Positions 21,750-49,665 of a stretch of 64,000 nucleotides of DNA are shown piece by piece; the first letter of the stretch is position 1, and every line of letters begins with the position of its first letter. The position numbers and the translations under genes are program-made. Source of the DNA: a virus; the IMG/VR virus record IMGVR_UViG_3300032334_001259, positions 1 through 64,000 of that record; one strand, written 5' to 3'. The notes beneath the pieces are model-generated. The model was not told where the DNA came from. It ran no database searches and saw nothing but the letters and a program-made list of their open reading frames with translations.

Positions 21750-22763
21750 TTAAACAGTTTCTAATTTACCACAGACTTGATCACATTGGATTAATCTACC
21801 GTTTTCATAGCTATCTTTTGTCCATGCACTTTCAACGGTATTAAACCATTTTATGCACGTTTCTAAGTCATATTCATGTAAACTATTATTTTTTACTAAT
21901 GGTTTAATTTGACGATTAATAAATCCATTAAATCCTTGCTTATAAGTTAAAGGATTAAACCCCATATAACAACATGGATAAACTAATCCATTTGCAGCAA
22001 TATAAATTGAATTATGGTTTTTTGTGAAACAATCATGGTATAGACCTACAATATATGGTTTATAAGAGTAAGTTTTGTTTGGATCTTGCTGAAAGCGAAT
22101 TATATCTTCAATATTTGTAAATCCATCATGTTTACCCATAACATGAACTAATTTACCACTGCGATCAAATACTGGACCAGTATTGCGACCATGATCTATT
22201 AAACAAAATTCTTTAAATCCTAATTTTTTAGAAAGTTTTTCTGCTTCTTCAATTTGGTGTAAATTATGCTCAAAACGTATCATCTTCCAAATAGCAACAC
22301 CGCCAGCATCTATGTATGTCTTTGCATTTTGAAGTATTTTATTAAAATTTGTATCTTGACGATACAGTGCGTGAGTATCTTCTAATCCATCTAAACAAAA
22401 TTGAATTTCAGTATTTGAAAATTTACCAAGATCGTGCCAAAAATCTGCATTTCTTGCGCTGCCATTTGTACTTATATCTATTATTAATTTTGAATAACAC
22501 GATTTAAAATAATCTAATATTTGTATAGATTCTAAATTAGCAGTAAAATCACCAAAGTTTCCATTAACTAGTATGCCCCGTTGAAGTTGGTTAATAAATT
22601 GTGACGAGAATGATTTTTTAATTAAATCAAGTGATAAATTTGTTTCTTCATAACCACTATTATATGGATAACCAAATAAGTTTCTTGGACAAAGAGGACA
22701 TCTTGCATTACATAGTGAACTAAATTCCATATGTAAATGTTTAATATTTTGATAAGTTATCAT
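21750..22763 (-). CDS. Radical SAM protein with SPASM-like C-terminus
   Basis: 337 residues from ATG 22763, 4 nt after the upstream stop; the in-frame TTG at 22802 would lie within the upstream gene. CNARCPLC (about 19-26) is the [4Fe-4S] CxxxCxxC motif that cleaves S-adenosylmethionine. NGNFGD and STNGS are the following strand motifs. Cysteines at VYPCCYMG and a C-terminal CDQVCG could hold an extra cluster, as in SPASM-type enzymes that modify peptides or sugars. It is paired with a beta-hydroxylase-like gene upstream. The substrate is unknown. Confidence 0.8.
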   Translation of the reverse strand: MITYQNIKHLHMEFSSLCNARCPLCPRNLFGYPYNSGYEETNLSLDLIKKSFSSQFINQLQRGILVNGNFGDFTANLESIQILDYFKSCYSKLIIDISTNGSARNADFWHDLGKFSNTEIQFCLDGLEDTHALYRQDTNFNKILQNAKTYIDAGGVAIWKMIRFEHNLHQIEEAEKLSKKLGFKEFCLIDHGRNTGPVFDRSGKLVHVMGKHDGFTNIEDIIRFQQDPNKTYSYKPYIVGLYHDCFTKNHNSIYIAANGLVYPCCYMGFNPLTYKQGFNGFINRQIKPLVKNNSLHEYDLETCIKWFNTVESAWTKDSYENGRLIQCDQVCGKLETV

Positions 22764-22767
22764 GTTT

Positions 22768-23565
22768 TTAACAATTTTTAAGTTTTTTAATAGCATTTCC
22801 AACTGTGGTATAAAAATCTTTATTATACAAAAATTCAGTTTTAGATATTTGGCTTAATTTATTATTTGCTTTTTCAATAATTTCATCTCTATACAATAAA
22901 AAATTTTCATTAGATATTGATTTGGGATTTATAATTTCTAAATTTTTAGGAGCAAAAAGCAAGTGTAATCTTTTTTTTCTTGATGCATTAAATGCACTAT
23001 GCAACACACCCGTATTTAATTTATATAATTTTTTAGTATCATTCATCACATAAGCAGCATTACCTTCTATAAAAAAACAATCTGGAATAGTGGTAATAAT
23101 TGGTAAATGATAGGCTACAAAACTTGAATCAATATGAAAATCATACATTGTATGAGGAAACATAGTAGCACATTTGATCATACGAAAATCTATTTTAGTA
23201 ATTGCTTGAATTTCTTCTAATGTTTCTTTTATATATTGAAATTTAGTATCATCTAATATGGAAATAAAACTATCAGTATTTTTTTCATAATCAATATATT
23301 GGGTTTCATTAAAATTTTCTAAACGCTGAACTAATTCTACGACTGTCATCAATTCATCATGAATTACATCATCCAAGTCTCTTACTGGACCTTCTAATTG
23401 TTTTTTTAAAGATAAAGCAGTATCGTGTGTTTTTAAATTTATTTTTTTAGTAGATGTATATTTTTTAACTTCTTCAAGTAGTACAACAATTTGATTATGG
23501 AATTTTGTCCAATTTATATCAGAGTCTTTTAAATCAATAAAATTAGGTAATTCTGGAATGGTCAT
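22768..23565 (-). CDS. Aspartyl/asparaginyl beta-hydroxylase-like 2OG-Fe oxygenase
   Basis: 265 residues. The N-terminal 110 are charged helices. The C-terminal half carries YDFHIDS (His and Asp as iron ligands), YHLPI, a Gly-Asn turn, TGVLHSAFNASRKKRLHLLF (second iron His and the Arg that binds 2-oxoglutarate). This is the Asp_Arg_Hydrox pattern: oxidation of a residue or small molecule with 2-oxoglutarate and O2. It is co-transcribed with the radical SAM gene (4 nt apart). Codons are AT-rich (Lys, Asn, Ile), suggesting cargo DNA. The substrate cannot be inferred. Confidence 0.65.
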   Translation of the reverse strand: MTIPELPNFIDLKDSDINWTKFHNQIVVLLEEVKKYTSTKKINLKTHDTALSLKKQLEGPVRDLDDVIHDELMTVVELVQRLENFNETQYIDYEKNTDSFISILDDTKFQYIKETLEEIQAITKIDFRMIKCATMFPHTMYDFHIDSSFVAYHLPIITTIPDCFFIEGNAAYVMNDTKKLYKLNTGVLHSAFNASRKKRLHLLFAPKNLEIINPKSISNENFLLYRDEIIEKANNKLSQISKTEFLYNKDFYTTVGNAIKKLKNC

Positions 23566-23639
23566 TGTTTTTTATTTAAGATATTTTTTAAATGATAAAT
23601 TATTATATTATTGGCACATTTAGGCATAAAGGGCAATCA

Positions 23640-25340
23640 ATGAAACTACCAGAAAACGCACAGGCACAATGCGAACAATTACTAAAACAATTTAGACGAC
23701 AAATACCAGATGATGCGGCGTATAGTGACCGACTTGTTGAAGAAATAGAAATCATACTGGGTCTACGCTTTACAGAATACTTCTTACAAATCCGTGAAAT
23801 ATTAGATATGACTAATGACTTACCACACATGACACGTGGTAGTGCAGGCAGTAGTCTTGTTTGTTGGGCATTAGGTATTACAGATGTTGATCCTATAAAA
23901 TGGGATATACCACTTTCACGATTTTTAAATCCGCACCGTGATGATTTACCAGACATTGATATAGACTATCCACATTGGGCACAAACTACAGTTATGGAAC
24001 GTATATTCAAACGTTGGCCTGGTAAAAGTGCAAGAATTAGTAACTATGTTACATTTAAAGAAAAAAGTGCCAAGCGTGAAGCAGCAAGACGACTTGGTGC
24101 AAAAGGAAAATTACCTCGTAACTTCAAATACGATGATCTTGACATTGACATAGGGGAAGCTATTCGTATTGAAAAGAAGTTGCTTGGTAAGAAACGAGCC
24201 ATCAGCAAACACTGTGGTGGCATACTTGTGTTCAAGCATAATCTACCTAAAAGTCTTATAAATGCTGATAATCAAATACTATTAGACAAACATGAAGTAG
24301 AAGACCTTGAACACTTAAAAGTTGATATACTTGCTAATCGTGGATTAAGTCAACTTTATGAAATAGAACCAAATATGGGTTTAGAAGATTATCCTGATTA
24401 TGATGAAGCAACTGTAAAACTTCTTTGTAATGGTGATGTGCTAGGCGTAACACAAGGTGAATCACCAGCAATGCGGCGATTGTTTCGTGCAATACAGCCA
24501 AAGTCACGTAGTGATTGCGTATTTGCTACTGCGCTTATACGTCCTGTTGCAACTACTGGTCGCCAAAAAGCCAGTTTCTTTCACGATTGGACAGAACAGC
24601 GTTTAGAAGAAAGTATTGTTTATGAAGATGATGCTATCAAAAAGATAAGCAAACTTATTGGTTGTGATATCTATGAAGCAGATATGTATCGCCGTGCATT
24701 TGCAAAAAAGAATGAAGAAAAAGTGTATGAGTTTATGCACCGTATGGGAACACACCCAAACAAGACAGAAATTGTAGATGAACTTTATCAACTTGGAAAC
24801 TTTGGACTATGCCGTGCACATGCTGTAAATCTTGGGCGATTGATTTGGGCATTAGCATATCAAAAAGCACATAACCCAAAACCATTTTGGGCAGCATATC
24901 TTAAACACTGTGAAGGCAGTTATCGTCGTTGGGTCTATAAATGTGAAGCCAAACGTGCTGGTTGGGATTTACGTGATCTAGGTTATAATTATAGTTTGTT
25001 AAATGACCCTATATATGAATATAGAAAATATGGATGGTGGGGTGATGCCGATTTTTTACAAGGTTTTTATTGTGCTAATCAATATCTTGACCGTTTTGAA
25101 TTTGCTGGTCTTGTTGCCAATGGTCGTGTATTTAAGGGAGAAGGCGGGAAATACATTACCTTTCTTACACTCGGAATTGACAACGGAAAATATATTGACT
25201 TATTGGTCAAGGGACCAGTAGCATATCATGATTATGATGTTGTATGCGGCGTAGGTAAAGTTAAAACAAGTAATGGCAGTCAGTATATTGAATGTCAAAA
25301 TGTGCGGACATTTAAGCTAGAAAAATTTATTTCTGCTTAA
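23640..25340 (+). CDS. C-family (DnaE-like) DNA polymerase core without PHP domain
   Basis: 566 residues from ATG 23640, with GGGC upstream; an in-frame ATG at 23592 adds 16 unlikely residues. It aligns with the PolIII-alpha core: RLVEEIEIILGLRFTEYFL, TRGSAGSSLVCWALGITDVD, RFLNPHRDDLPDIDIDYP (catalytic D105 and D107), LKVDIL (third Asp, D229), a finger segment LGVTQGESPAMRRLFRAIQP, and GLCRAHAVNLGRLIWALAYQ as the Ser/His-rich finger helix. Residues 487-560 look like the OB fold. The PHP domain (first ~280 residues of bacterial DnaE) and a clamp-binding tail are missing. It is a lone plus-strand gene between minus-strand replication genes. It may be a polymerase, or a repurposed one. Confidence 0.82.
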   Translation: MKLPENAQAQCEQLLKQFRRQIPDDAAYSDRLVEEIEIILGLRFTEYFLQIREILDMTNDLPHMTRGSAGSSLVCWALGITDVDPIKWDIPLSRFLNPHRDDLPDIDIDYPHWAQTTVMERIFKRWPGKSARISNYVTFKEKSAKREAARRLGAKGKLPRNFKYDDLDIDIGEAIRIEKKLLGKKRAISKHCGGILVFKHNLPKSLINADNQILLDKHEVEDLEHLKVDILANRGLSQLYEIEPNMGLEDYPDYDEATVKLLCNGDVLGVTQGESPAMRRLFRAIQPKSRSDCVFATALIRPVATTGRQKASFFHDWTEQRLEESIVYEDDAIKKISKLIGCDIYEADMYRRAFAKKNEEKVYEFMHRMGTHPNKTEIVDELYQLGNFGLCRAHAVNLGRLIWALAYQKAHNPKPFWAAYLKHCEGSYRRWVYKCEAKRAGWDLRDLGYNYSLLNDPIYEYRKYGWWGDADFLQGFYCANQYLDRFEFAGLVANGRVFKGEGGKYITFLTLGIDNGKYIDLLVKGPVAYHDYDVVCGVGKVKTSNGSQYIECQNVRTFKLEKFISA

Positions 25341-26730
25341 GATTGTTTAACATTTGTCGTAGCGCACTGCTGTTTACATCAGCCTGTATTTTACCAGGTT
25401 GATCTTCTACCACTGCTTCTGTTGATGGCTTAACATTACTGCCACCCTTGATGCTTGCAAAGATACTACTGCTTTGTTTCTTAAATTGTTGATAATCTGG
25501 ATCTTCTGCCAAATCACGAATACGCAAACTATCAATATCAAATTCAAGTTCAATCTTCTGTCCAACACCACTACTACTACGAGTCTTCATAAGTTGTAGT
25601 TGATACTTGCCATGTTCACGCATACTACGACTTGTAAAGATACCAAACAAATTATCCGCAGTGTTAATCTTACTGATACCACCACTGATATGACTGTGGT
25701 CAAATTCAACTTCTTCTACCGATGCACGGTTTAACTGTGAAGCAGTTACAAGAAGTATGTCTAATTCTTTTGCAAAGTTACGAATTTCTTCACTGACATA
25801 CTTGTCTTTAACGAACAGATCGCTTGGACTTACTTTTGCACTTACTGGCATAAGAAGATCAAGGTAATCAATCATAACAAAGTCTACACGACGACCTGTG
25901 CGGATTTGAAGTTCTTTAATATAAGCACGAACGTCATTGATATTGCTTTGTGCTGGCATATATTTGATTTGTAATCTGCCACTTTTCTTACCAAGCATCT
26001 TAACTTTAACTTCAATATCTTCAATACTCTTAAAGATATCTCGTGACGGTGTATTGGTAAGCATACCATCAATACGCATGGCAGTAAGTTCTTCACTTAA
26101 TTCAAGTGTAATGTATACGCCATTAAGACCAGCCAATATCCAATTACATGCAATATTCTGCATGAACAATGATTTACCACTACCAGAACCACCAGCAAAG
26201 ATATTCAACTCACCACGGTTAAATCCACCAAATAACTTCTTATCAAGTGTAGTCCAACCACTACTTGTTTGACCATTATTGTCTTTAATTTTATTCAATC
26301 GTGCAATAGGATCAAGGAAATAATCAGTTCCAAGGTCTTTGGTTAAACTTATTTGTACTGCATCTTTAATAATTTTTTCAACAGGATCAAAGTCACCCTT
26401 CTCAAGCATATCTGCGGCTTTAAGAATTGCACGTTCAAGTTCTTTTTGTTTAGTAAAACCTTCAAATTCTTCCAAGAACCAACTTGTATGGTCGTCGGTC
26501 ATACCAGGTATTGGTTGGAAAGTATTGCTGGTGGCAGCATTAATTTGTTCTACTAATGGCATAATAGTATGCTTGTCACAATGTTCTTTAATGAACCTTG
26601 CAGCACTTTGTAAACTACGGTCAAAGTTGTTTGGATTGAAAATGTTTTGGACACGCACATAGCTTTGTGGATCACTTAACATCATTTCAATGAATAGTTT
26701 TTGAACTTGGGTATCATAAGATTTAGACAT
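25327..26730 (-). CDS. gp41: Replicative DNA helicase, DnaB-type
   Basis: 467 residues, matching T4 gp41 length. GGSGSGKSLFM (about 180-190) is the Walker A of the RecA-like core, VDFVMIDYLDLL is Walker B, and TASQLNRA and the Gly-rich SGGISKINTADNLFGI region fit DnaB motifs H3/H4. It unwinds the fork as a hexamer with the phage primase (27984-28982) of the same strand. The -10 box TACAAT lies 6 nt before the ATG with a weak -35, so the mRNA may be leaderless. The 3' end overlaps the DnaE-like gene on the opposite strand by 14 nt. Confidence 0.9.
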   Translation of the reverse strand: MSKSYDTQVQKLFIEMMLSDPQSYVRVQNIFNPNNFDRSLQSAARFIKEHCDKHTIMPLVEQINAATSNTFQPIPGMTDDHTSWFLEEFEGFTKQKELERAILKAADMLEKGDFDPVEKIIKDAVQISLTKDLGTDYFLDPIARLNKIKDNNGQTSSGWTTLDKKLFGGFNRGELNIFAGGSGSGKSLFMQNIACNWILAGLNGVYITLELSEELTAMRIDGMLTNTPSRDIFKSIEDIEVKVKMLGKKSGRLQIKYMPAQSNINDVRAYIKELQIRTGRRVDFVMIDYLDLLMPVSAKVSPSDLFVKDKYVSEEIRNFAKELDILLVTASQLNRASVEEVEFDHSHISGGISKINTADNLFGIFTSRSMREHGKYQLQLMKTRSSSGVGQKIELEFDIDSLRIRDLAEDPDYQQFKKQSSSIFASIKGGSNVKPSTEAVVEDQPGKIQADVNSSALRQMLNNLKQK

Positions 26731-26811: not shown

Positions 26812-27987
26812 ATGATTACATCTGTTGAAGGCGCAGTTTCGTATAATAATAAATTATCTTTTTTGATTGATTGGGAAATTACCTTAAAATGTAATTTGGA
26901 CTGTGGATATTGTGACAAAGGTATTTACGGTGGACATGAAAACAGTATTCCTCATCCAAATTTAGAAAAATGTTTAAAAACTTTAGATTTTTTATATGAA
27001 TATGTTGACATTTATATGCAAGCAAAGAAAAATTTACAAAGTGCCGTTTTGAATGTATATGGTGGAGAAAGTTTATATCATCCTGACATTGTTACAATTT
27101 TAAAACAAAGCAAAGAAAAACATCAAAAATATAATTGGAATTTGACAATTACTACAACTACAAATTTAATTTTAAGTCAAAAAATATTAAATCAGATATT
27201 AAATTATATAGATGAATTTACGTGTAGCTTTCATTCTGAAAACACAGACAAACAATTAGAAATTTTTAAAGAAAATTTGTTATTTTTAAAAAGCAATAAT
27301 AAAAATTTTAAAGTTGTAATTCTAATGAATCCTAAAAAATGGGAATATTGTTTAGATATGATTTCTTTTTGTCAAGAAAACAATATGAGATTTTTAATAA
27401 GACAGCTTGATCAACCATTAGCCAAAGCTCCCGATAATTATAATTCAGAACTTAAAAAAAAAGAAACTTGGTATTATAATGTTTATCTTGATCGTCCAGA
27501 AAATCATGAACCCAAATACACATATTCTCAAGAACAAATATCTTGGTTTGAAGAGGAATATAATGGTAGAAATAAAAACACTGTAACTTCTATTGACAAA
27601 AATAATAATTTAAATGAACAAGGTAGATGCTGCTGTGGTGGTCGTTTATTATCTACAAATCAAAATTATAAAAATAAAGTAAGTTTTGTTAATAACAATT
27701 TTTTTGATTGGTATTGCTCAGTAAATTATTTTTTTGTTTTTGTGAAACAAGTTACAGAAGAAATATTTGTTAATAAAGATTGTATGATGAATTTTTCTGG
27801 AAATATCGGTCCTATTGGTAATTTAAAAAATTATAATGAACTTTTAAATTTTACAAAAACAAATTTAGAAAATAAAACATTACCTGTAATAAAATGTGCC
27901 AAACAACTTTGCAGATGTGGTTTATGTGCACCAAAAGCAAAAGATAAAGAAATATACTTAAAAATTATGAACAAATATATAAATTAA
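26812..27987 (+). CDS. Radical SAM protein, lone plus-strand cargo gene
   Basis: 391 residues. CNLDCGYC (about 28-35) is the CxxxCxxC cluster motif, LNVYGGESL the conserved Gly-Gly-Glu SAM-binding strand, and TITTTTNL a further barrel strand. The C-terminus has many cysteines: QGRCCCGGRLL, DWYCSV, CAKQLCRCGLCAPKA, enough for one or two auxiliary clusters as in SPASM/twitch proteins. It is extremely AT-rich (Asn, Lys, Ile). It stands alone on the plus strand between helicase and primase and overlaps the primase stop, so it looks like an inserted moron. The substrate is unknown. Confidence 0.78.
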   Translation: MITSVEGAVSYNNKLSFLIDWEITLKCNLDCGYCDKGIYGGHENSIPHPNLEKCLKTLDFLYEYVDIYMQAKKNLQSAVLNVYGGESLYHPDIVTILKQSKEKHQKYNWNLTITTTTNLILSQKILNQILNYIDEFTCSFHSENTDKQLEIFKENLLFLKSNNKNFKVVILMNPKKWEYCLDMISFCQENNMRFLIRQLDQPLAKAPDNYNSELKKKETWYYNVYLDRPENHEPKYTYSQEQISWFEEEYNGRNKNTVTSIDKNNNLNEQGRCCCGGRLLSTNQNYKNKVSFVNNNFFDWYCSVNYFFVFVKQVTEEIFVNKDCMMNFSGNIGPIGNLKNYNELLNFTKTNLENKTLPVIKCAKQLCRCGLCAPKAKDKEIYLKIMNKYIN

Positions 27988-28982
27988 AACCATCTTTTTG
28001 TTTGTAATTTTATTTTTAAGCTAGATTGTTCAACACTACTTAAAATGCTTTTCATAGTAAATGTATGTCCATACTTGGCTACCGCATCTGCAGTATCTTT
28101 AATACCACTTTCCCAATCAGGAAATGCCACACTCCAACCATATCTTAGGGCAGCATCAACCATTGCGTGACCAGCTTTATCACGATCAGGGACAACAATA
28201 ATATCACGGTCAAGCGTTTCAATAACATCAGCTTGTATATCATTAATTTCATTACTACAAATTGCAAGTGCACCAATGGCAACTGCATCAAGTAATCCTT
28301 CAACTACAATACAGAACTTTGCGTTCTTGTGTTGTTTATCATATCCCCATATCATGTTGCTTGGATAGTTTGAAAAGTATTTGATCTTTTTCTTACCATC
28401 TTCAAATAACCGTCCACTGAAACCCATGGGCTTATTGTTCCAAGTAAATGGAACTAACACACGGTTACGCAATGCCGCATCATTAGTCCAATAAAACTCA
28501 TGCAACTTATCGCCAAAACCACGAGTATCAAGATAATTGATAGCATTTTCAAGACTGTTATAATCTGCTTCATTGATATATCCATCATTTAACCAATTTG
28601 TAATTGGACGACCAGGACAAGGATCACGTGGTTCATAGGTAGGTAACTCACGTGGTTCAACTACAACTGGCTTGGTGGTCTCTTGGCTGATAGCAAATAA
28701 TGCAAGACGACCTATAAGGTCTTCACCCATACCAAGCCAGTTCATCCAACGCCGCATTTTATAACTTAAACGACGACCAGGTTGCCAACTACAAGTGTAA
28801 TGACAATTAAAACAATGATAATTGATACCGCCTTCTGGTGTTTGATGAACGCCACCACGACCACGAGTATCGGCTTCATGTCCTAAATGCTGACAGCATG
28901 GTGCGTTAAAGCTAATCCATCCACTTGGAGTAGCTTTCTTTTTCCATGGCAAGTGTGCCAGTAGTTGGTTGGTAATTTCCAT
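27984..28982 (-). CDS. gp61: DNA primase, DnaG-type
   Basis: 332 residues, close to T4 gp61. The N-terminal zinc-binding domain has CCQHLGHEADTRGRGG and HCFNCHYTC (Cys and His ligands). The catalytic TOPRIM part shows FCIVVEGLLDAVAIGA (Glu motif) and IIVVPDRDKAGHAMVD (DxD motif). It makes RNA primers for lagging-strand synthesis with the gp41-type helicase. A consensus sigma70 promoter ends 6 nt before the ATG, so this gene is probably read from a leaderless early transcript. Confidence 0.9.
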   Translation of the reverse strand: MEITNQLLAHLPWKKKATPSGWISFNAPCCQHLGHEADTRGRGGVHQTPEGGINYHCFNCHYTCSWQPGRRLSYKMRRWMNWLGMGEDLIGRLALFAISQETTKPVVVEPRELPTYEPRDPCPGRPITNWLNDGYINEADYNSLENAINYLDTRGFGDKLHEFYWTNDAALRNRVLVPFTWNNKPMGFSGRLFEDGKKKIKYFSNYPSNMIWGYDKQHKNAKFCIVVEGLLDAVAIGALAICSNEINDIQADVIETLDRDIIVVPDRDKAGHAMVDAALRYGWSVAFPDWESGIKDTADAVAKYGHTFTMKSILSSVEQSSLKIKLQTKRWF

Positions 28983-29017: not shown

Positions 29018-29802
29018 GGACGATAATAAATGTAATTCATCTGACCGCTAATTTGGCTTACTTTAAATCTTACAGCACGATATTTGCCTTGGAAATTAAA
29101 GTAATTTGTGCCACTGACATTAGCACAGTTAGCATAACTTATTGTAGTAAAGCTGTTAGCATCAACCACACTCTTTGCGTCCAAACTTGCTTGTAACTGG
29201 ATATTGCCAGTAAAAGCATTTGCATTATATTGTACGGTCTGATAAACAGCACTACCACGAACATAATTTGCTGTCAAGAAGCTACTGCTATAAGCAACAT
29301 TTACATAGTTTGTATCGCCGTCATTACTATAGGTAAAATTGTTAGCAAGATAGCTTGAAGTAAACTGTGGATAAACACCATCGTTTATTCTAGCTTGACC
29401 CTGTGCCTGATAGTTGTCATCGCTGTAAACAATTTCTTGTTCACCACTACCATTTGTAGCAACAATGCTGTAATTATATAAACCAGCGTTTATATTATCA
29501 AGTAAACTGCCTTCAATAAGACAAGTTGCTACACCATCACGTGTATAAACAAGGTCAAGATTGCGTGAAAATACTAATTCTTTTGTAGTGCTATCAATTA
29601 AATTAAATAAAACTGTGCTTTGTAAAAGGCTCGCAGGTTTTTGGTCATTATTTTTAATAACGAACTTAAATCTATTATCTACACCTTTATAGATTTGTAA
29701 TGGTTTGGCGTAAAACAACTGATTCTCCCTGTGTAATGCAAGGTCGCTGTTCTTTACAACAGTTATAATTTGTGGATATAAATAACCTGAAATTTGCTGC
29801 AA
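29014..29802 (-). CDS. Probable virion (tail/baseplate) protein, TTG start
   Basis: 262 residues, beta-rich with many Asn, Ser, Tyr and Thr. The first half looks like an Ig-like or BppU-like domain (LQIYKGVDNRFKFVIKN, VLFNLIDSTTKELVFSR, GVATCLIEGSLLDNINAGLY). The second half has repeated Y-A-N/S-S patterns and a C-terminal strand region KYRAVRFKVSQISGQMNYIY. I place the start at TTG 29802 with AAGGG 9 nt upstream; no ATG fits. A late-type box AATAAATA is 19 nt upstream. It is separated from other structural genes by replication genes. Confidence 0.55.
   Translation of the reverse strand: MQQISGYLYPQIITVVKNSDLALHRENQLFYAKPLQIYKGVDNRFKFVIKNNDQKPASLLQSTVLFNLIDSTTKELVFSRNLDLVYTRDGVATCLIEGSLLDNINAGLYNYSIVATNGSGEQEIVYSDDNYQAQGQARINDGVYPQFTSSYLANNFTYSNDGDTNYVNVAYSSSFLTANYVRGSAVYQTVQYNANAFTGNIQLQASLDAKSVVDANSFTTISYANCANVSGTNYFNFQGKYRAVRFKVSQISGQMNYIYYRP
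29777..29784 (+). promoter_or_regulatory. Plus-strand late promoter box (TATAAATA)
   Basis: Exact late consensus on the plus strand, 44 nt before the ATG of the gene at 29829. It lies inside the 5' end of the divergent minus-strand gene. Confidence 0.5.
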
Positions 29803-29820
29803 CTAATGGACCCTTTTTAA

Positions 29821-29828
29821 TATTTATT
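29821..29828 (-). promoter_or_regulatory. Late-type promoter box (AATAAATA) for the 262-aa virion gene
   Basis: One mismatch to consensus on the minus strand, 18 nt before the TTG start. It abuts the ATG of the divergent plus-strand gene, so the two late promoters face across each other's genes. Confidence 0.45.
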
Positions 29829-30203
29829 ATGAGTTTTTCACTGGAACAAATGCTTGAACAATATCCCTTCTTAAGTTACATAAAATATCCCACTGCGGAC
29901 TTTATTGGAATTATACAAAATTTTGATGGCGACATTGTTTCCATGTATGCCTTTAATAAATTAAAAACCGAAGAAGATAAACGTGGTTTTTTAGAAGCAG
30001 CAGAAATATGGTGGTGGGAAAGTAATCGGTTGATACCAATCAATATTTTTTTAAAGCATGGTTGGGACAAATATCGTTATAGTACAGTAACACTTACAAC
30101 AAAAGATATAAGAGAGCAGTGTGGTCACATAGTAAGCATTGCAAAACTTGCAGAACGTAGAACAAAACGCAGAGTTGTTCAGTTAGTTAAACGACTCGGT
30201 TAA
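29829..30203 (+). CDS. Unknown lone plus-strand protein (124 aa)
   Basis: 124 residues from ATG 29829. An earlier in-frame ATG at 29772 would overlap the divergent gene and the late box. The protein starts MSFSLEQMLEQYPFLSYIKY, has a beta region (FIGIIQNFDGDIVSMYAFNK), a Trp-rich segment AAEIWWWESNRLIPINIF and a basic tail (LAERRTKRRVVQLVKRLG). No family was recognised. Its 3' end overlaps the end of the small DnaE-like gene by 21 nt. Confidence 0.5.
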   Translation: MSFSLEQMLEQYPFLSYIKYPTADFIGIIQNFDGDIVSMYAFNKLKTEEDKRGFLEAAEIWWWESNRLIPINIFLKHGWDKYRYSTVTLTTKDIREQCGHIVSIAKLAERRTKRRVVQLVKRLG

Positions 30204-30743
30204 CAAATTCATATGAACCATAACTAATTGTGCATAGCCATAAGCATGCGCTTTCTTAAAATAATAACCTTCATTTGGTTTAATCCAAATCTCATCAGCT
30301 ATTTCTCGCCATCGTTTTCCGATAAGGTGTCGTTTGGATGGACGAATGATTGCCAATACCATAGCCAACATATCCATTGAAGTAGGATGATGTTGTTGTA
30401 AGACATCAAAATGATTTGATAAATGAATAAGTTTGGCAACAAAATCCCTTTCTTTTAATAGTTCCCACTGTGGTTCACGTTTACAGAGTTCGTCAAGATG
30501 CTCGTTACTGCAAACTGAATTATAAACGTGAACATTTAGTAGGTCTAACTTCATATAACCTAATTCTTCTGCCGCATCATAATCAACATTGCTTAAACCA
30601 GTAAGTGGGTTTTGGGGTATGGGATTGACATAGACTCCAGTGTTGTGCTTGACAACGTTACCGTCACGGCGTATAGACGCAGGCACGTGCTTGATAAGTT
30701 TCAAGATATCCTCACGGCTTCCGAAATCTATGTCAATATCCAT
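30183..30743 (-). CDS. Mini DnaE-like protein: C-family polymerase palm motifs only
   Basis: 186 residues. It opens directly with the catalytic motif MDIDIDFGSREDILKLI (D2 and D4), then NVVKHNTGVYVNPIPQNPLT (the region of the conserved His/Gly segment), EELGYMKLDLLNVHVYNSV (third catalytic Asp, D67), MVLAIIRPSKRHLIGKRW (finger RPG-like block) and YYFKKAHAYGYAQLVMVHM (the K-SH-A-Y finger helix). All three catalytic aspartates are kept in a protein about a sixth of DnaE length, lacking PHP, thumb, HhH and OB parts. It could act as a subunit with another protein, a regulatory decoy, or a decayed gene kept by selection. It abuts the 83-aa gene. Confidence 0.68.
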   Translation of the reverse strand: MDIDIDFGSREDILKLIKHVPASIRRDGNVVKHNTGVYVNPIPQNPLTGLSNVDYDAAEELGYMKLDLLNVHVYNSVCSNEHLDELCKREPQWELLKERDFVAKLIHLSNHFDVLQQHHPTSMDMLAMVLAIIRPSKRHLIGKRWREIADEIWIKPNEGYYFKKAHAYGYAQLVMVHMNLLTESFN

Positions 30744-30995
30744 TTATGCCCATCTCATTAAAAATAAACTACGTTCTTCATCATTAATAAACCCTAACAT
30801 CGTACCGTATTGTGACCACTTTGTCAAGGAAAAATTGCACCATGCCTTAATATCTTCTTCATTCTTTACCCAGAATGATGGATCAGCGATAATAAGAAAA
30901 CTTTTGTTTATTATCAAATCAAGCGCATAGACATTATCAGATAAGTCACGAATATCTTTCAATGATGCGGTACCAACTACAAATCGTGCCGCCAT
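30744..30995 (-). CDS. Conserved small phage protein (83 aa)
   Basis: 83 residues with GTASLKDIRDLSDNVYALD, LIINKSFLIIADPSFWVKNE and WSQYGTMLGFINDEERSLF. It appears soluble and alpha/beta. It lies between the zinc-finger protein (1-nt overlap) and the mini-DnaE gene (adjacent), so a functional link with either is possible. The function is unknown. Confidence 0.5.
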   Translation of the reverse strand: MAARFVVGTASLKDIRDLSDNVYALDLIINKSFLIIADPSFWVKNEEDIKAWCNFSLTKWSQYGTMLGFINDEERSLFLMRWA

Positions 30996-40059: not shown

Positions 40060-40371
40060 ATGAAAATTATAAAAAAAAGAATTTTGGTTTTAAGTGATCC
40101 TAATACTGATATAGATGGTGATCACCCATCTATGAGATTTGATGAACAAAGATATATAGATGATGGTATAATAGAATCAATTATTGAAACCAAAAGTGAT
40201 GATAATTTAACATTTACAAAAGAAATACACTTCAATAGTTTTGAAAATTTTGCAAGATATAATGCAGACAGGTTATCATCAGTTGACTATGAATTAGAAT
40301 TAGCTAAAGCTAAGTATTTGGCTCAACATAATATGTCTTTAACTGAAATTTATATGATTTTAGTTGATTAA
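40060..40371 (+). CDS. Unknown lone plus-strand protein (103 aa)
   Basis: 103 residues, starting MKIIKKRILVLSDPNTDIDG, with an acidic middle (SIIETKSDDNLTFTKEIHF) and a C-terminal helix (LELAKAKYLAQHNMSLTEIY). It is AT-rich, with a late promoter and a good ribosome site. No family was recognised. The 3' end overlaps the glycosyltransferase-like gene on the other strand by 4 nt. Confidence 0.5.
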   Translation: MKIIKKRILVLSDPNTDIDGDHPSMRFDEQRYIDDGIIESIIETKSDDNLTFTKEIHFNSFENFARYNADRLSSVDYELELAKAKYLAQHNMSLTEIYMILVD

Positions 40372-41081
40372 TTTTCGTAATTACTTCTAGGATAACGTTC
40401 ACGATAGTGACGTTCACCTGGTTGCAAACTACGAGCCAACTCTACATAATCTGGTCCCTTACTATGCAACCAAGCCTCATGGTCAAAACGCCAATGAGGA
40501 TTGGTTGGGTGGCGTGTAAACTGTGTGAAGTTATGATTTAATCTATCTTCTGGATGTGCAATAGGTTCTAACTTGGCAATATAATCGCTTTTTGCCCACC
40601 AGAAATTGCCAGCAAAATGTGGCCACGGAACTGTATTATAATTTGTTCCTACTACTTCTGCACCTTCACGAAGTGCTTCAACATTATCACGCCATTTTTC
40701 AATCGTTGCCCAATTCATAAAATCACGCCAATCACCAACGTTTGGATCACCATAACGTAACAAACCTTTAAGATGAATATAACAAATGTAAAATGGTTCT
40801 GTTGCTTCACGTGCTTGTTGTAACATATACATCAGCGTTGGCCATTCATGATAAGCAGCATCTTTGTTGACACTTGCAAGTTTAAGTTTTCCTGCCGTAT
40901 CATTAATATTTTTTGTTGACAGCCAATTAGTAAAGGTCCAAGGTTGACCATTCATACAAATATGGATTTCATTGGCTGCATCCCATAGTCCTGACTTTTC
41001 AATTAAGTCCCACTGTTGGTCCATTACTTGGTTCCAACCGCCTAGTTCATTTACGTGCCAGAAAATCTTGATCGGTGTCAT
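40368..41081 (-). CDS. Glycosyltransferase-like protein (237 aa)
   Basis: 237 residues. IKIFWHVNELGGWNQVMDQQ, ICYIHLKGLLRYGDPNVGDW and WPHFAGNFWWAKSDYIAKL form a pattern I associate with a family of bacterial and phage surface-glycan proteins: the N-F-W-W-A-K block lies where GT-A acceptor loops occur. There is no clear D-x-D. It is downstream of the tRNA-Ala gene and its strong sigma70 promoter, so it may be expressed early with the tRNA. Confidence 0.45.
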   Translation of the reverse strand: MTPIKIFWHVNELGGWNQVMDQQWDLIEKSGLWDAANEIHICMNGQPWTFTNWLSTKNINDTAGKLKLASVNKDAAYHEWPTLMYMLQQAREATEPFYICYIHLKGLLRYGDPNVGDWRDFMNWATIEKWRDNVEALREGAEVVGTNYNTVPWPHFAGNFWWAKSDYIAKLEPIAHPEDRLNHNFTQFTRHPTNPHWRFDHEAWLHSKGPDYVELARSLQPGERHYRERYPRSNYEN

Positions 41082-41100
41082 GTTATTACCTTGTTGATGT

Positions 41101-41174
41101 TGGTGGAGAATATCAGAGTCGAACTGATGAATCCGCCTTGCAAAGGCGGCGGTTTTCCACTAGCCTAATTCCCC
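41101..41174 (-). tRNA. tRNA-Ala(UGC) with encoded CCA
   Basis: 74 nt. Acceptor stem GGGGAAT/ATTCTCC, 7 bp with the third pair G-U (the alanine identity element), discriminator A, encoded CCA. Anticodon stem CCGCC/GGCGG, loop TTTGCAA, anticodon TGC. T-arm ATCAG-TTCGACT-CTGAT with a standard TTC loop. The D-arm is short with one mismatch. It has its own sigma70 promoter. Confidence 0.93.
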
Positions 41175-41184
41175 ACAGGATAAT

Positions 41185-41213
41185 AATATATATTCATATA
41201 TTATACTTGTCAA
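41185..41213 (-). promoter_or_regulatory. Sigma70 promoter for tRNA-Ala
   Basis: TTGACA (41213-41208), 17-nt spacer, TATATT (41190-41185), 10 nt before the tRNA 5' end. It is placed directly behind a strong terminator, so the tRNA unit is independent. Confidence 0.82.
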
Positions 41214-41214
41214 T

Positions 41215-41265
41215 AAAAAACCTCTGCGTGGCCCATGTTAGTTACACCAGAGGCAGAGGTTTTTA
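41215..41265. terminator. Strong hairpin terminator, effective on both strands by sequence
   Basis: ACCTCTGC (41220-41227) pairs with GCAGAGGT (41253-41260), the stem being flanked by A and T runs. In the minus direction it is followed by TTTTTTATTG. It separates the upstream unit (41411 and above) from the tRNA promoter. Confidence 0.75.
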
Positions 41266-41390
41266 AAGTAGCCATCATCGGATGATGAGACCAACCCAAC
41301 GAGTTGAATTGGGGGGTTAAGCTAGTTAAAAGATCAATAAAAAACGTATTCCGTTAGTTGGACACACTCTCACAGGAGTGGTTATAGAAT
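41216..41390 (-). ncRNA. Possible structured small RNA ending at the terminator
   Basis: About 145 nt between the 63-aa gene and the terminator hold no convincing ORF but several hairpins: CACTC/GAGTG (41365-41380), CAA-rich/TTG stems with GGGGGG (41293-41318) and CATCA/TGATG (41273-41287), then the terminator stem. A late-like box TATAAATT (41398-41391) sits at the start. The content could instead be untranslated 3' sequence of the 41411-41602 gene. A 22-codon frame (MMATLKTSASGVTNMGHAEV...) lies across the terminator but is probably chance. Confidence 0.4.
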
Positions 41391-41410
41391 AAATTTATAA
41401 ACTGATAATA

Positions 41411-41602
41411 TTATTTAACACTTTTTATTACGTCAATCAATAAACTTTTAAATTCTTCTTTTGCAGGTAAGAAAACCTCTTCACGAATTTGATTGCGATG
41501 TCTATAATTACTATACTTTTCTTCTTCCCACATATCATCCTGTGCATCAATCATCTTTTCCATAGCAATTAACATTTTTTCTAATAATTCGTCTGTTGTC
41601 AT
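41411..41602 (-). CDS. Small charged helical protein (63 aa)
   Basis: 63 residues, helical and charged (LLEKMLIAMEKMIDAQDDMW, IREEVFLPAKEEFKSLLID). ATG 41602 has GAGGATAA in front and lies 8 nt after the methyltransferase stop. No function is recognised. Confidence 0.5.
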   Translation of the reverse strand: MTTDELLEKMLIAMEKMIDAQDDMWEEEKYSNYRHRNQIREEVFLPAKEEFKSLLIDVIKSVK

Positions 41603-41609
41603 TTTATCC

Positions 41610-42341
41610 TCATAATGATAAGAAACTTTGTGAACGGTCTATCCATTCTAATACTAAATCTTTTTCGTCAAAATTATCAATACCATTTAGTTTAGCATCT
41701 AAACAATAGGGAAGTCTATTTGTTTCTTTTAATTCATATAAACTATTATACATACGTGGTTCATCATCTGTTTTATATACAGCAGCACGTAACCAACCAT
41801 TTTGTTTATCCAATTGAAAATGTGCATCACGACAATCAAAACCAGCACTTGCTAATTGAACAATAAGACTGCTCATAGTGTAAACATGATACATACCGCT
41901 TGTCATATTAACATTAATTGTATTGTGTTGAATATGTTCACTTATGGAAAGTGAATATGGAATTTCAACTATTAATAATCCATCTTTTCGTAACAATTTA
42001 TGCCAATGAAATAGTGTTCCAACTGGGTCCATTGCATGATGTAATACATTGTGACACCATATAAGGTCTTGTGGTGATAGTTCAACTGTTGCAAAATCTT
42101 CAAATATCCATTTCATACCTTGTACTGTTTGTAAGTTGTATGGTGGTGCTATTTCCACAGCAGTTACATTAAAATTATACTTGCGTCCTTCTGGACTTGT
42201 TAGTGATGCCCACCATACAGCATCATAACCCATACCAGCACCCATTACACAAATATTATCTAATCCCATAAGATAATCTTCTAAAATAGACAAATAATTT
42301 AATGTTACAAGACTATGGGCATGGCTTTCTTGAGGTGTCAT
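41610..42341 (-). CDS. SAM-dependent methyltransferase-like protein
   Basis: 243 residues. ICVMGAGMGYDAVWW is the motif I Gly-rich loop, VTAVEIAPPYN the acidic strand, DLIWCHNVLHHAMDPVGTL motif post-I/II and KDGLLIVEIPYS motif III of class I SAM methyltransferases. It probably methylates a sugar or lipid intermediate of the adjacent glycan island. It is the last gene of that island on this strand and is divergent from the epimerase gene at 42394. Confidence 0.7.
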   Translation of the reverse strand: MTPQESHAHSLVTLNYLSILEDYLMGLDNICVMGAGMGYDAVWWASLTSPEGRKYNFNVTAVEIAPPYNLQTVQGMKWIFEDFATVELSPQDLIWCHNVLHHAMDPVGTLFHWHKLLRKDGLLIVEIPYSLSISEHIQHNTINVNMTSGMYHVYTMSSLIVQLASAGFDCRDAHFQLDKQNGWLRAAVYKTDDEPRMYNSLYELKETNRLPYCLDAKLNGIDNFDEKDLVLEWIDRSQSFLSL

Positions 42342-42393
42342 AAGGTGTCCGTTAAATATTGCTATAGATTATATAGTAGGATATTATTCGGTT

Positions 42394-43191
42394 ATGAAAA
42401 TTTTAATCACAGGAAGCAACGGGTTTATTGGCAGTTATTTGTGCAAATATTATACCGAATATGGTCATCAAGTTATACAATTACATCGTGGTGTTTGTGA
42501 TTTAGAAGATGCTGAAAGTGTTAAAAATTTCTTTACTGCAAATCCATGTAACGCAGTAATTCATACTGCATTATGGGGTCGTGAATTAGTTCGCAGTGAT
42601 AATCCAGAAGTATATGAACGAAACTGGAAAATTTGGCAAAATCTATTAAGTAATCGTGATAAGTTTCAACAATTTATTAATCTTGGAACTGGCTTGGAGT
42701 ATGATAGTGGACGAGACATCAAATATGCTGATGAAGATGATGCCTTATATGTGGAGCCTACTGCTCCTTATGATCGTGTTAAAAACGATATATCTCGTGC
42801 TATTCATAATCTACCATCTTTTTATACACTTCTTTTATTCGGAGTAGCACATTATACAGAAGGTAATCGTTTCTTTAATCGTTTGCTGAATGAACCAACA
42901 TTTACAATCAATGAAGATCGTGAATATGATTATTTTAATTTAGAAGATTTACCAACCGTAATAGATTTAATTTTAGATAATAAAATGCAACATAAAGCAA
43001 TAAACTGTGTTTATGAGCAGAAATATAAATTAAGTCAACTTGCAAAATTATTCTGTGATATTAAAATGCTTGATTATAAAAAAGTGCAAGTATTAGACAC
43101 TAGTAATAAAAATTATACTGGAAGCAATGACAGATTAAAAAGTTATAATCTGCCACTACTTGGTTTAGAATTAGCCATGCTTCGGTTTTAA
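42394..43191 (+). CDS. NAD-dependent sugar epimerase/dehydratase (RmlD-like)
   Basis: 265 residues. ILITGSNGFIGSYLCKYY is the Gly-rich NAD-binding loop, NLGTGLEYDSG the serine/threonine strand region, and YDRVKNDISR carries the Y-x-x-x-K catalytic pair. It is short for the family (usually 300-340). It acts on a nucleotide-sugar in the glycan island. It is a lone plus-strand gene, convergent with the 43171 gene (21-nt overlap). Confidence 0.72.
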   Translation: MKILITGSNGFIGSYLCKYYTEYGHQVIQLHRGVCDLEDAESVKNFFTANPCNAVIHTALWGRELVRSDNPEVYERNWKIWQNLLSNRDKFQQFINLGTGLEYDSGRDIKYADEDDALYVEPTAPYDRVKNDISRAIHNLPSFYTLLLFGVAHYTEGNRFFNRLLNEPTFTINEDREYDYFNLEDLPTVIDLILDNKMQHKAINCVYEQKYKLSQLAKLFCDIKMLDYKKVQVLDTSNKNYTGSNDRLKSYNLPLLGLELAMLRF

Positions 43192-44178
43192 TTTACCGTT
43201 TTCATCAAACAAGATTTCAGCAAAACGTTTCTTGCATGATTCACCATTCCATGCTTGTTGCATTTTAGCAACCTGTTCAACACCAATTTCAATTGCTTGC
43301 TTAAAACTTGTTTGTGGATATTGTGGAATATACTGTTGAATGTGACGGAAAGCATGGTCACCACTGCATAACATTGGTCTACCAACCATAAGTGCTTGGT
43401 CAGTTGCACTACTGATACCAGTTGTATTACGAGCATAGAAAAATACGTTAAGTGTATTCTGTGACAACCATTCTAATAATTCTTGATCACTAAAATAATT
43501 TTCAGTAAGTTGTATTTCAATGCCAGGTTTTGCAATAGGTAAACACTGTGTAGCAACTTCCATACGAGCATAACCGCCAACATCACCATAGTAACTACCA
43601 GGTGCATAGTTCATACGAATGATTGCACGATCAAATTCTTCATTAACTGCACGAACAAGATTACCCAGATTTCTACCGTGACCAGCTAAACCATAAGTTC
43701 CAATAACTGGTATTTCTTTTTCTACATATGGCTGAACTTTTGCTGTGCCAAGTGGACGTGGGAAAGCATAGAAACGCTTGTCATGAAAATCAGCGGTTGG
43801 GTCTACCCAAAAATAAGCATCAAAATCATCAATGTTTACACCTTCTAAACCAGCATATGGATTGTTTGGAAATCCTTCAAAATGAAAGCAGAACTTCATA
43901 CCTGGCAAGTTCTTACAAATCATTTCACTACGCACACCGCTTTGGTCACGCATAGTGGAAATATGATAGTTAAAGAAATATGCATCATATGGTTCTTTCT
44001 CTTTACCACGATGAATAACTTTGCCATTATTAAGTGCGGATATATCTAAATCATTTGTTTCAAAATAATCCATAGTATAATTTGCACCGTCTTTAAGAAC
44101 ATTATGCAACATTCTACCAATAGTGCTCATACTACAAGCACCACGATCTTTGTTTATAAGTGCAAATTTATAGGTCAT
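43171..44178 (-). CDS. GT-B-type glycosyltransferase 1
   Basis: 335 residues, one of three related proteins (43171, 44175, 46118). Shared order: an N-terminal half ending in a P-V-I-G turn (EIPVIGTYGLAGHGRNLGNL), then a basic ExxRAIIRMNYAP strand, NYFSDQELLEWLSQNTLNV and FYARNTTGISSATDQALMVG. This last matches the donor-binding E-x(7)-E region of GT4-like folds with a D-Q-A motif in place of the usual E. I infer a retaining glycosyltransferase. It is coupled to the next gene by a 4-nt overlap. Confidence 0.6.
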   Translation of the reverse strand: MTYKFALINKDRGACSMSTIGRMLHNVLKDGANYTMDYFETNDLDISALNNGKVIHRGKEKEPYDAYFFNYHISTMRDQSGVRSEMICKNLPGMKFCFHFEGFPNNPYAGLEGVNIDDFDAYFWVDPTADFHDKRFYAFPRPLGTAKVQPYVEKEIPVIGTYGLAGHGRNLGNLVRAVNEEFDRAIIRMNYAPGSYYGDVGGYARMEVATQCLPIAKPGIEIQLTENYFSDQELLEWLSQNTLNVFFYARNTTGISSATDQALMVGRPMLCSGDHAFRHIQQYIPQYPQTSFKQAIEIGVEQVAKMQQAWNGESCKKRFAEILFDENGKLKPKHG

Positions 44179-45155
44179 AACCCAATCCTTTTGAATATTT
44201 TAGTAAAGTCTTCATGTATCTGTTCTGGTGTAAATCTTTTGTAAACTGGTTCCCATGATTTAGTTCCGTTTGCTATAATTTGTTTCAATGATGAATTTTC
44301 AACAATAATAGTTGGTTCTAAATTCCAATAACTCTTAAACTGATGGCTTTTAGTAATTGCAATAGGGCGACGAGCAGCAATGGCATAATCAATACTACCA
44401 CTCATGCCAGCACCATCAAGATAATCATAGAAGTAACAATTGACTGTATTTTGTGCAAGCCAATTTACAATACCTTGCTCATCTAACCAATCATTGCTTA
44501 CTTCTACTTTAATACCAGGTTTGGTGATAATAGAATTTACTTGTGCAAGAATTTGTGGACCATATGTATTTTTTGGTTGTGTAAAGAAACCATCTGGCAT
44601 GTGCAGTCGTATAATAGCTTCATCGAATTCATGTTGAACTTGTGCTGCTATTCTATGAACGCCCTTCCATGGTGCTGGAAATCCTTGCCACCCAATTACA
44701 GGAATACCTTGTTCAACATATTCTACTGTTGGTGTTTTTGCAGGTAAATGATTTACAACAAATACACCTTCATTATGTGGAACGCTTTCATCGTATGTCA
44801 TCATATATTGCCATATAGGATGCGTATATGGATTCCATTGTTCAGCAAATTGTTTGGCTTGATCATAAACAATACAAATACACTTAATATCTGGATATAA
44901 TCCACGTAGACTCATTTTTTCAATCCACGGATTTACACCTTTATGAAAATTAAAAATAACTAAATTTGGTTTGTAATCTAATATCTTTTTGCTACACTCA
45001 TCAATACTGTCAGTATAAATTGTCTCAATTTTATAAAGTGGATGTGTATCTAAAATATTTGCTAATAGCGAACCAGTTAAACTAACACCACATCTACCAC
45101 GATCATTTTCATCAGTAATTGGTGTAGTAACATATAATATCTTTGCGTTATTCAT
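44175..45155 (-). CDS. GT-B-type glycosyltransferase 2
   Basis: 326 residues, paralogous to the genes at 43171 and 46118: EQGIPVIGWQGFPAPWKGVH, FDEAIIRLHMPDGFF, SNDWLDEQGIVNWLAQNTVN and DGAGMSGSIDYAIAARRPIA. The N-terminal half (ILYVTTPITDENDRGRCGVS) has the GT-B Rossmann outline. Probably adds a sugar to the same surface structure as its paralogs. It overlaps the GDP-mannose epimerase-like gene by 8 nt. Confidence 0.6.
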   Translation of the reverse strand: MNNAKILYVTTPITDENDRGRCGVSLTGSLLANILDTHPLYKIETIYTDSIDECSKKILDYKPNLVIFNFHKGVNPWIEKMSLRGLYPDIKCICIVYDQAKQFAEQWNPYTHPIWQYMMTYDESVPHNEGVFVVNHLPAKTPTVEYVEQGIPVIGWQGFPAPWKGVHRIAAQVQHEFDEAIIRLHMPDGFFTQPKNTYGPQILAQVNSIITKPGIKVEVSNDWLDEQGIVNWLAQNTVNCYFYDYLDGAGMSGSIDYAIAARRPIAITKSHQFKSYWNLEPTIIVENSSLKQIIANGTKSWEPVYKRFTPEQIHEDFTKIFKRIGL

Positions 45156-46116
45156 TTGCTTTTTTTACCTGTTCTGCAATCCAGTGATATGTTTTGCTTA
45201 AGCCACCGTATAAATCTTGGGTAGGAACCCAACCAAGTTTTTCACGAATTAAATCATTATTGCTATTACGACCACGAACACCCTGTGGTCCTTCAATATG
45301 TTTAATTGTTATTGTTTTATCAGCAATACCACTTACGGTTAATACAAGATCGTTGATACTAATAAGATAATCACTACCAATGTTGATTGGACCTTCAAAG
45401 TCACTATCCATTAAACGCATAATGCCTTCTACACAATCATCAATATGTAGAAAACTACGAGTTTGTTTACCATCACCCCATACTTCAATCTCGCCGCCTT
45501 CTTCTGCCTCTGCAATTTTGCGGCAAATAGCAGCTGGTGCTTTCTCTTTGCCACCTTGCCAAGTGCCGTATTCACCAAATATATTATGAAAACGTGCTAT
45601 ACGATTACGCATACCATGTTGACGATTGTAGGCAAGATAAAGACGTTCACTAAACAATTTTTCCCAACCATATTCGCTATCTGGATGAGCAGGATAAGCA
45701 GTATGTTCACGGCAATCTGGATTTTCTGGGTCTAATTGGTTAAATTCGTTGTAAATACAAGCACTACTACTAAAAAATACTTGTTCTACGCCATGACGAT
45801 GTGCGGCTTCAACAACATTTAGATTAATTTTAGCACTGTTAGTCATAACTTCTGCATCATTAATACCAGCATTGATATAACCAGCACCACCCATGTCAGC
45901 AGCAAGCTGAAATACACGGTCAACTTTACGACCAATGATAAAATTAACGACGTTTGGATTGCGACAATCACTGATGTAGAACTCATCACATGCACTTGAT
46001 GCAAATTCTGGTTGTTTTAAATCAACACCACGAACCCAATATCCATCAGTCTTTAAACGTTTGGCAACATGACTACCAATAAATCCACCTGCACCTACTA
46101 CAACTGCCGTTTTCAT
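45148..46116 (-). CDS. GDP-mannose 3,5-epimerase-like enzyme
   Basis: 322 residues from ATG 46116, which has GAGG upstream and follows the previous stop; an in-frame ATG at 46134 would overlap that gene. VVVGAGGFIGSHVAKRL is the NAD loop. SSSACIYNE, YGWEKLFSERL (Y-x-x-x-K), NIFGEYGTWQGGKEKAPAAI and IEGPQGVRGRNSNNDLIREK are very close to GDP-mannose 3,5-epimerases. It would convert GDP-mannose to GDP-L-galactose or GDP-gulose, or act on a related GDP-sugar made by the dehydratase at 49666. Confidence 0.82.
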   Translation of the reverse strand: MKTAVVVGAGGFIGSHVAKRLKTDGYWVRGVDLKQPEFASSACDEFYISDCRNPNVVNFIIGRKVDRVFQLAADMGGAGYINAGINDAEVMTNSAKINLNVVEAAHRHGVEQVFFSSSACIYNEFNQLDPENPDCREHTAYPAHPDSEYGWEKLFSERLYLAYNRQHGMRNRIARFHNIFGEYGTWQGGKEKAPAAICRKIAEAEEGGEIEVWGDGKQTRSFLHIDDCVEGIMRLMDSDFEGPINIGSDYLISINDLVLTVSGIADKTITIKHIEGPQGVRGRNSNNDLIREKLGWVPTQDLYGGLSKTYHWIAEQVKKANE

Positions 46117-46117
46117 T

Positions 46118-47095: not shown

Positions 47096-47098
47096 ATT

Positions 47099-48016: not shown

Positions 48017-48020
48017 GTTA

Positions 48021-49663: not shown

Positions 49664-49665
49664 GA

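What the first reader, a model, noticed from the sequence alone, without database searches (positions are those of the whole stretch)
30183..30743. Minimal 186-residue polymerase palm that starts at its catalytic motif
A protein beginning M-D-I-D-I-D-F, with the catalytic pair as residues 2 and 4, is far below the size of any known active C-family polymerase, yet the third Asp and the finger helix are kept. Selection on the catalytic residues argues against simple decay.
Basis: inference. Interest (0 to 1): 0.7.

Follow-up and report, generated by a model that had tools for sequence, protein, structure and literature searches.

The report
Half of a split phage polymerase
This small phage gene makes one half of a stripped-down bacterial-type DNA polymerase whose other half is encoded 227,000 bases away; the two-piece enzyme was predicted from sequence in 2021, and I found no experiment showing that it works.

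Summary
Window 30743..30183 (-) encodes 186 aa starting MDIDIDF, with an in-frame stop directly upstream. It is an old, conserved gene (phrog_11778), found in 64 phage records and about 600 IMG/VR contigs. In 143 loci with a C-part frame, the four acidic residues and K65, R134, K137 and H166 never vary. No frame is broken, and dN/dS against close relatives is 0.09-0.25.

The reading "minimal polymerase" needs correcting. It is not stand-alone but the C-terminal half of a split Pol III alpha. The N-terminal half (171 aa, phrog_11127, with the GRGS nucleotide-binding motif) lies at 257441-257956 (-) of the same 338-kb genome. N ends at E. coli DnaE residue 393; C starts at 400. 59 of the 60 C-part phage records I could compare also hold N. 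Iyer et al. 2021 (PMC7824862) already described this split enzyme, beside a family-B polymerase, in group 2.2 jumbo phages.

New here: the thumb and R709/R710 regions are missing; R390 is acidic and K543 Tyr/His throughout. The pair also occurs in a 141-kb non-jumbo phage. This phage and near relatives add an unsplit, PHP-less C-family polymerase (582 aa, 23592-25340). Activity is untested.

The parts
30183..30743 (-). C-terminal half of the split Pol III alpha-like polymerase, 186 aa, phrog_11778
   Evidence: ORF; phrog_11778 E = 1e-60; predicted fold matches only Pol III alpha / PolC chains, Z up to 8.9, next unrelated row 2.5
30726..30740 (-). DIDID, residues 2-6: metal-binding D2 and D4 (E. 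coli D401, D403) and D6 (D405)
   Evidence: invariant in 143 loci; E. coli numbering
30543..30551 (-). K65-x-D67: third catalytic Asp (E. coli D555) and K553 equivalent
   Evidence: invariant in 143 loci; E. coli numbering
30234..30257 (-). finger-helix motif K163-K-A-H166-A-Y-G-Y170 (E. coli KSH760 region)
   Evidence: HMMER alignment to 2hnh; conservation
30744..30995 (-). context: 83-aa gene directly upstream; its TAA touches the ATG of the polymerase half
   Evidence: only a weak match to phrog_17618, E = 0.058
29830..30203 (+). context: small convergent gene, phrog_11637, overlapping the 3' end of the polymerase half; same arrangement in nearly all relatives read
   Evidence: ORF 29772-30203 with ATG at 29830; relatives
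27984..28982 (-). context: DNA primase subunit (gp61-like), same block in relatives
   Evidence: phrog_47 E = 8e-25; synteny
25327..26730 (-). context: DnaB-like replicative helicase (gp41-like), same block in relatives
   Evidence: phrog_19 E = 9e-67; synteny
23592..25340 (+). context, separate gene: unsplit PHP-less C-family polymerase core, 582 aa, with the active-site residues checked (R362, G363, S364, R390, D401, D403, K543, K553, D555, R709, R710, H760 equivalents)
   Evidence: PF07733 and PF17657; residues mapped to E. coli DnaE; distribution

Best explanation
The gene encodes the C-terminal half of a two-subunit, minimal Pol III alpha-type (C-family) DNA polymerase. It supplies the DxDxD strand, the third Asp and a short finger domain. 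A separately encoded 171-aa subunit supplies the start of the palm and the GRGS pocket that holds the incoming nucleotide. The two chains most likely pair to complete one palm sheet, with the seam between E. coli residues 393 and 400, and catalyse two-metal nucleotidyl transfer. Shown: homology and colinearity of both halves, co-occurrence, invariance of the metal ligands, purifying selection. Inferred: that the halves bind each other and are active. Speculative: the role. Because the C-half sits beside primase and helicase, the N-half near the clamp loader, and a family-B polymerase is in every genome searched, I favour short primer extension or gap filling that hands over to the B-family replicase, comparable to B. 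subtilis DnaE handing over to PolC (own knowledge).
For: C-half: phrog_11778 1e-60; predicted fold matches only Pol III alpha / PolC, Z 8.9, 3.2 A over 115 residues for 2hnh. N-half in the same genome: phrog_11127 E = 5e-39, PF07733 over cut-off, weak fold match to E. coli alpha 281-393, Z 5.6. Colinear without overlap: N ends at 393, C starts at 400. Co-occurrence: 59 of 60 listed C-part records are in the N-part list; the exception is a 109-kb record; also OP752703 and one Alishewanella phage by profile. N and C divergence correlate, Mantel r = 0.79, 0 of 5000 permutations (also expected from shared descent). No fused or broken copy in 143 loci. Each half alone is modelled badly just where it would meet the other: C residues 1-37, N residues 137-171. 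Synteny with primase/helicase and, for N, clamp loader/GroES. Family-B polymerase in own genome and 13 of 13 records.
Against: Several dNTP and primer contacts of canonical Pol III alpha are absent: R390 is Glu or Asp in all N-halves, K543 is Tyr, His or Phe, and the stretch with R709/R710 is about 89 residues shorter, as is the thumb region by about 79. So activity as a normal polymerase is not assured. No data show contact between the halves; low model confidence may come from shallow alignments (19 and 14 sequences). The N-half fold match is below the range where Z alone is convincing.
Confidence: 0.75

Rival explanations
1. The pair is no longer a DNA polymerase but a nucleotidyltransferase or two-metal enzyme with another substrate (terminal transferase-like, RNA- or nucleotide-modifying), having kept the metal site and lost the triphosphate clamp and the thumb.
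For: Metal ligands, K65, H33, G36, R134, K137 and H166 invariant, while R390, K543 and the R709/R710 region are changed or gone.
Against: The finger fold and the template-side helix are retained; genes lie in replisome blocks. Invariant K137 and mostly Arg/Lys 138 could replace the lost arginines (untested).
Confidence: 0.2
2. The C-half is a non-catalytic binding module, for example a decoy or regulator of host Pol III, or a partner of the phage's own 582-aa polymerase.
For: It lacks most of the enzyme; a 582-aa C-family polymerase lies 5 kb away in this phage.
Against: Metal-binding Asp residues never vary in 143 loci, which a scaffold would not need. 582-aa relatives are absent from all ten named phages that carry the C-half and from the 322-kb contig G012.
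Confidence: 0.08
3. The gene is a decaying fragment of a longer C-family polymerase.
For: Small size and start at the catalytic motif.
Against: About 600 relatives of the same length class, no broken frames in 143 loci, dN/dS 0.09-0.25, and a matching N-half conserved in the same phages.
Confidence: 0.01

Closest known systems
Split minimal DNA polymerase III alpha of group 2.2 jumbo phages (Iyer et al. 2021, PMC7824862); phrog_11778 + phrog_11127
   Same: Same two-piece layout, separate distant genes, family-B polymerase alongside; relatives include Atu_ph07, which Iyer et al. place in group 2.2.
   Different: A new freshwater/environmental lineage, 47% identical to Atu_ph07 over the C-half; here the protein starts directly at the motif with no 4-19 residue extension; the genome also holds an unsplit C-family polymerase; a 141-kb phage carries the pair too.
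Bacterial Pol III alpha (DnaE, PolC)
   Same: Metal site D401/D403/D555, K553, H760, and R362-G363-S364 on the N-half.
   Different: No PHP, OB or C-terminal domains; thumb and R709/R710 regions missing; R390 acidic, K543 Tyr/His; two chains.
Split-intein DnaE of cyanobacteria
   Same: Pol III alpha encoded in two genes.
   Different: No intein sequence fits in these short ORFs, so no trans-splicing is expected; these would be two stable subunits.
PHP-less DnaE-like polymerases of actinophages and of phage LR756508.1
   Same: PHP-less C-family core in phages; closest relatives of the 582-aa neighbour (37% and 27%).
   Different: Single chain; LR756508.1 has the unsplit form and no split pair.

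Membership tests
Split minimal Pol III alpha of group 2.2 phages (C-half, phrog_11778) | Sequence family match over full length | tested here: met
   E = 1e-60, protein 1-183 to profile 7-193 of 197
Split minimal Pol III alpha of group 2.2 phages (C-half, phrog_11778) | Separate, distant gene for the N-terminal NTP-binding half in the same genome | tested here: met
   phrog_11127 at G000:257444-257866 (-), 227 kb away
Split minimal Pol III alpha of group 2.2 phages (C-half, phrog_11778) | Family-B DNA polymerase in the same genome | tested here: met
   PF00136 at G000:222854-224053 (-), 887-aa frame
Split minimal Pol III alpha of group 2.2 phages (C-half, phrog_11778) | Mg-binding Asp residues kept | tested here: met
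   no substitution in 143 loci
Split minimal Pol III alpha of group 2.2 phages (C-half, phrog_11778) | The two halves form one active enzyme | not testable with these tools
   predicted by Iyer et al. 2021; no experiment found
Canonical C-family DNA polymerase (Pol III alpha) | Palm and finger fold | tested here: met
   for the fingers and the strand before them only: Z 6-9 to Pol III alpha / PolC, model residues mainly 68-186
Canonical C-family DNA polymerase (Pol III alpha) | Whole catalytic core (GRGS + DxD + third Asp) on one chain | tested here: not met
   GRGS motif is on a second gene
Canonical C-family DNA polymerase (Pol III alpha) | dNTP-contacting Arg residues R390, R709, R710 | tested here: not met
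   R390 position is E/D in 21 N-halves; interval between R639-P640 and H760 is 31 instead of 120 residues. Role of these residues: PMC4374717
Canonical C-family DNA polymerase (Pol III alpha) | PHP domain | tested here: not met
   no Pfam match in the C-half, only PF07733 in the N-half; chains of 186 and 171 aa leave no room for one
Canonical C-family DNA polymerase (Pol III alpha) | Polymerase activity | not testable with these tools
   needs purified proteins

The most novel reading that the evidence does not exclude
A thumb-less, two-chain C-family polymerase with a rebuilt nucleotide pocket (R390 to acidic, R709/R710 gone, new invariant K137) is an active, widespread replication enzyme of large T4-related phages, perhaps the smallest C-family catalytic core, working at primers beside a B-family replicase.
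Probability: 0.4. Interest if true: 0.75.

Novelty: new member of a known kind. Interest (0 to 1): 0.42.

Why it matters
If the pair works, a C-family polymerase core needs only about 360 residues on two chains, without thumb, PHP or OB domains. That would make the minimal requirements and the origin of bacterial replicases testable. It would also answer why phages with a B-family replicase keep a second polymerase, and it corrects annotations, since the C-half is called 'hypothetical' or 'putative membrane protein' in many records. The split itself was published in 2021, so what remains new here is the residue-level analysis, the wider host range of the pair, and the coexisting unsplit polymerase.

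Tried and rejected
Pfam scan of the C-half at E <= 1: no match. PDB profile search of the C-half: only weak Pol III alpha matches, best E = 0.031, used for residue mapping, not as proof. Foldseek with the N-half model: no useful match; only the second look gave E. coli alpha. hhalign of the C-half to full-length polymerases aligned only residues 36-137 (probability 70%), so the mapping of D2-D6, H33 and H166 rests on HMMER matches and motifs. Decay and chance were rejected. A split intein was considered and rejected on length. A DnaQ-type exonuclease (PF00929) was not found in the own genome, although related phages are reported to have one. No paper with experiments on the split enzyme was found in the held library.

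Full report
What is there. The ORF at 30743..30183 (-) is 186 aa and starts MDIDIDF; an in-frame TAA touches the ATG, so the start is forced. It matches phrog_11778, 'DNA polymerase', over its length at E = 1e-60. Tblastn finds it in 63 phage records at 32-49% identity in the rows shown (RaK2-like phages, Atu_ph07, PA5oct, Phosso, SCTP-2, Vibrio 2.275.O and others) and a divergent query finds 64.

Selection. In 143 loci with a C-part ORF there is no substitution at D2, D4, D6, H33, G36, K65, D67, R134, P135, K137, H166 or Y170; gaps occur only in frames cut by contig ends or, for single columns, in the alignment. No frame is broken and none is fused to an N-half. Among 43 coding sequences the codons of D2, D4, D6 and D67 are both GAT and GAC, and pairwise dN/dS against 23 close relatives is 0.09-0.25. 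The scan selects on motifs, so its part of the sample is biased toward conservation; the phage records were found without motifs and those aligned agree.

What it is. The AlphaFold2 model of the C-half (mean pLDDT 71.6) is confident for residues 75-186 and poor for 1-37. Its only good structural neighbours are Pol III alpha and PolC chains (Z 5.6-8.9; next unrelated row 2.5), in the finger region, E. coli residues 559-780. By HMMER and by motif, D2/D4 = D401/D403, K65/D67 = K553/D555 and H166 = H760. The region before the DxD, with the GRGS nucleotide-binding motif, is missing from this chain.

The other half. The same 338-kb virus record encodes a phrog_11127 protein at 257441-257956 (-), 171 aa, ending ...GVGRGSSVASFVLYLIGVHRIHSLRNNLEFAEFMR (coordinates of the full ORF derived from the locus). 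It passes the Pfam cut-off for PF07733. Its profile aligns to E. coli DnaE and stops at residue 393; the C-half starts at 400. The weak fold match of its model is to E. coli alpha 281-393. Of the 60 C-half records listed, 59 are also in the N-half list; the exception, PP728206.1, is a 109-kb record. Halves also co-occur in G009 and G012. N and C distances over 12 genomes correlate, r = 0.79, as shared descent alone could also give. G014, G015 and G016 show only the N-half but are partial contigs.

Known already. Iyer et al. [quoted passage not shown] The CBB genome paper had noted a truncated 172-aa alpha-like protein (PMC5259590), which from position and size is the N-half. That the published pair is this pair is my inference from group, layout and family; the paper's figure was not available.

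What is added. (1) Residues: R362-G363-S364 are kept on the N-half, but the R390 position is Glu (Asp once) in 21 N-halves, K543 is Tyr/His/Phe, the interval D405-H511 shrinks from 106 to 27 residues if H33 is H511 (motif-based), and the interval P640-H760 from 120 to 31, removing the R709/R710 stretch. PMC4374717 lists R362, R390, R709 and R710 as contacts of the incoming nucleotide. The active site is therefore intact for metals and altered for nucleotide binding; invariant K137 is a candidate replacement (inference). (2) Synteny: in most annotated relatives the C-half is followed by a convergent small gene, a structural protein, primase and helicase; the N-half sits with a GroES-like gene and often the clamp loader. 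(3) Range: Alishewanella phage Slicko01, 141 kb, has both halves; its sister Slickus01 has at least the C-half. (4) A family-B polymerase is present in the own genome and in 13 of 13 records searched. (5) An unsplit 582-aa PHP-less C-family polymerase at 23592-25340 (+) keeps the active-site residues checked. It occurs in close relatives, not in the ten named phages tested, and in LR756508.1, which has the unsplit form only. In one relative (L128) it is reduced to a 67-codon remnant beside an intact C-half contig, so it is dispensable where the split pair is kept.

Mechanism. Best supported: two chains complete one palm and catalyse two-metal nucleotidyl transfer. That each half is modelled poorly exactly at the seam fits this but could reflect shallow alignments. 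Whether it is a true DNA polymerase is open (about 0.55 in my judgement); the role at primers is a guess from gene neighbours (about 0.25).

Noticed in passing
window 23592-25340 (+): Unsplit PHP-less C-family polymerase (582 aa) in a phage that also has a family-B polymerase and the split pair; patchy in relatives and decayed to a 67-codon remnant in L128.
   Followed up: partly
L090 (LR756508.1, 484-kb uncultured phage): Carries a 574-aa relative of the 582-aa polymerase; both halves' profiles match only this protein there, so it may resemble an unsplit form. The R710 position is Asn.
   Followed up: partly
L130 and OQ508957.1 (Alishewanella phages, 141 kb): Non-jumbo phages with the C-half; Slicko01 also has the N-half about 11 kb away. 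The published description covers jumbo phages only.
   Followed up: partly
window 29772-30203 (+): Convergent small gene (phrog_11637) overlaps the 3' end of the polymerase half by 21 bases; an opposite-strand gene at this place recurs in nearly all relatives.
   Followed up: no
window 26812-27987 (+) and 21750-22802 (-); L092, L094: Radical-SAM-like genes (CxxxCxxC) beside the helicase and the 582-aa polymerase differ between close relatives, suggesting a cargo region.
   Followed up: no
L071 (NC_042013.1) 2567-3061: RefSeq start of the Atu_ph07 C-half is placed after the DIDID motif, so the annotated protein lacks two catalytic Asp residues; an in-frame ATG exists upstream at 2486.
   Followed up: partly
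window 40368-50685: Long run of glycosyltransferase-, methyltransferase- and sugar-epimerase-like ORFs.
   Followed up: no
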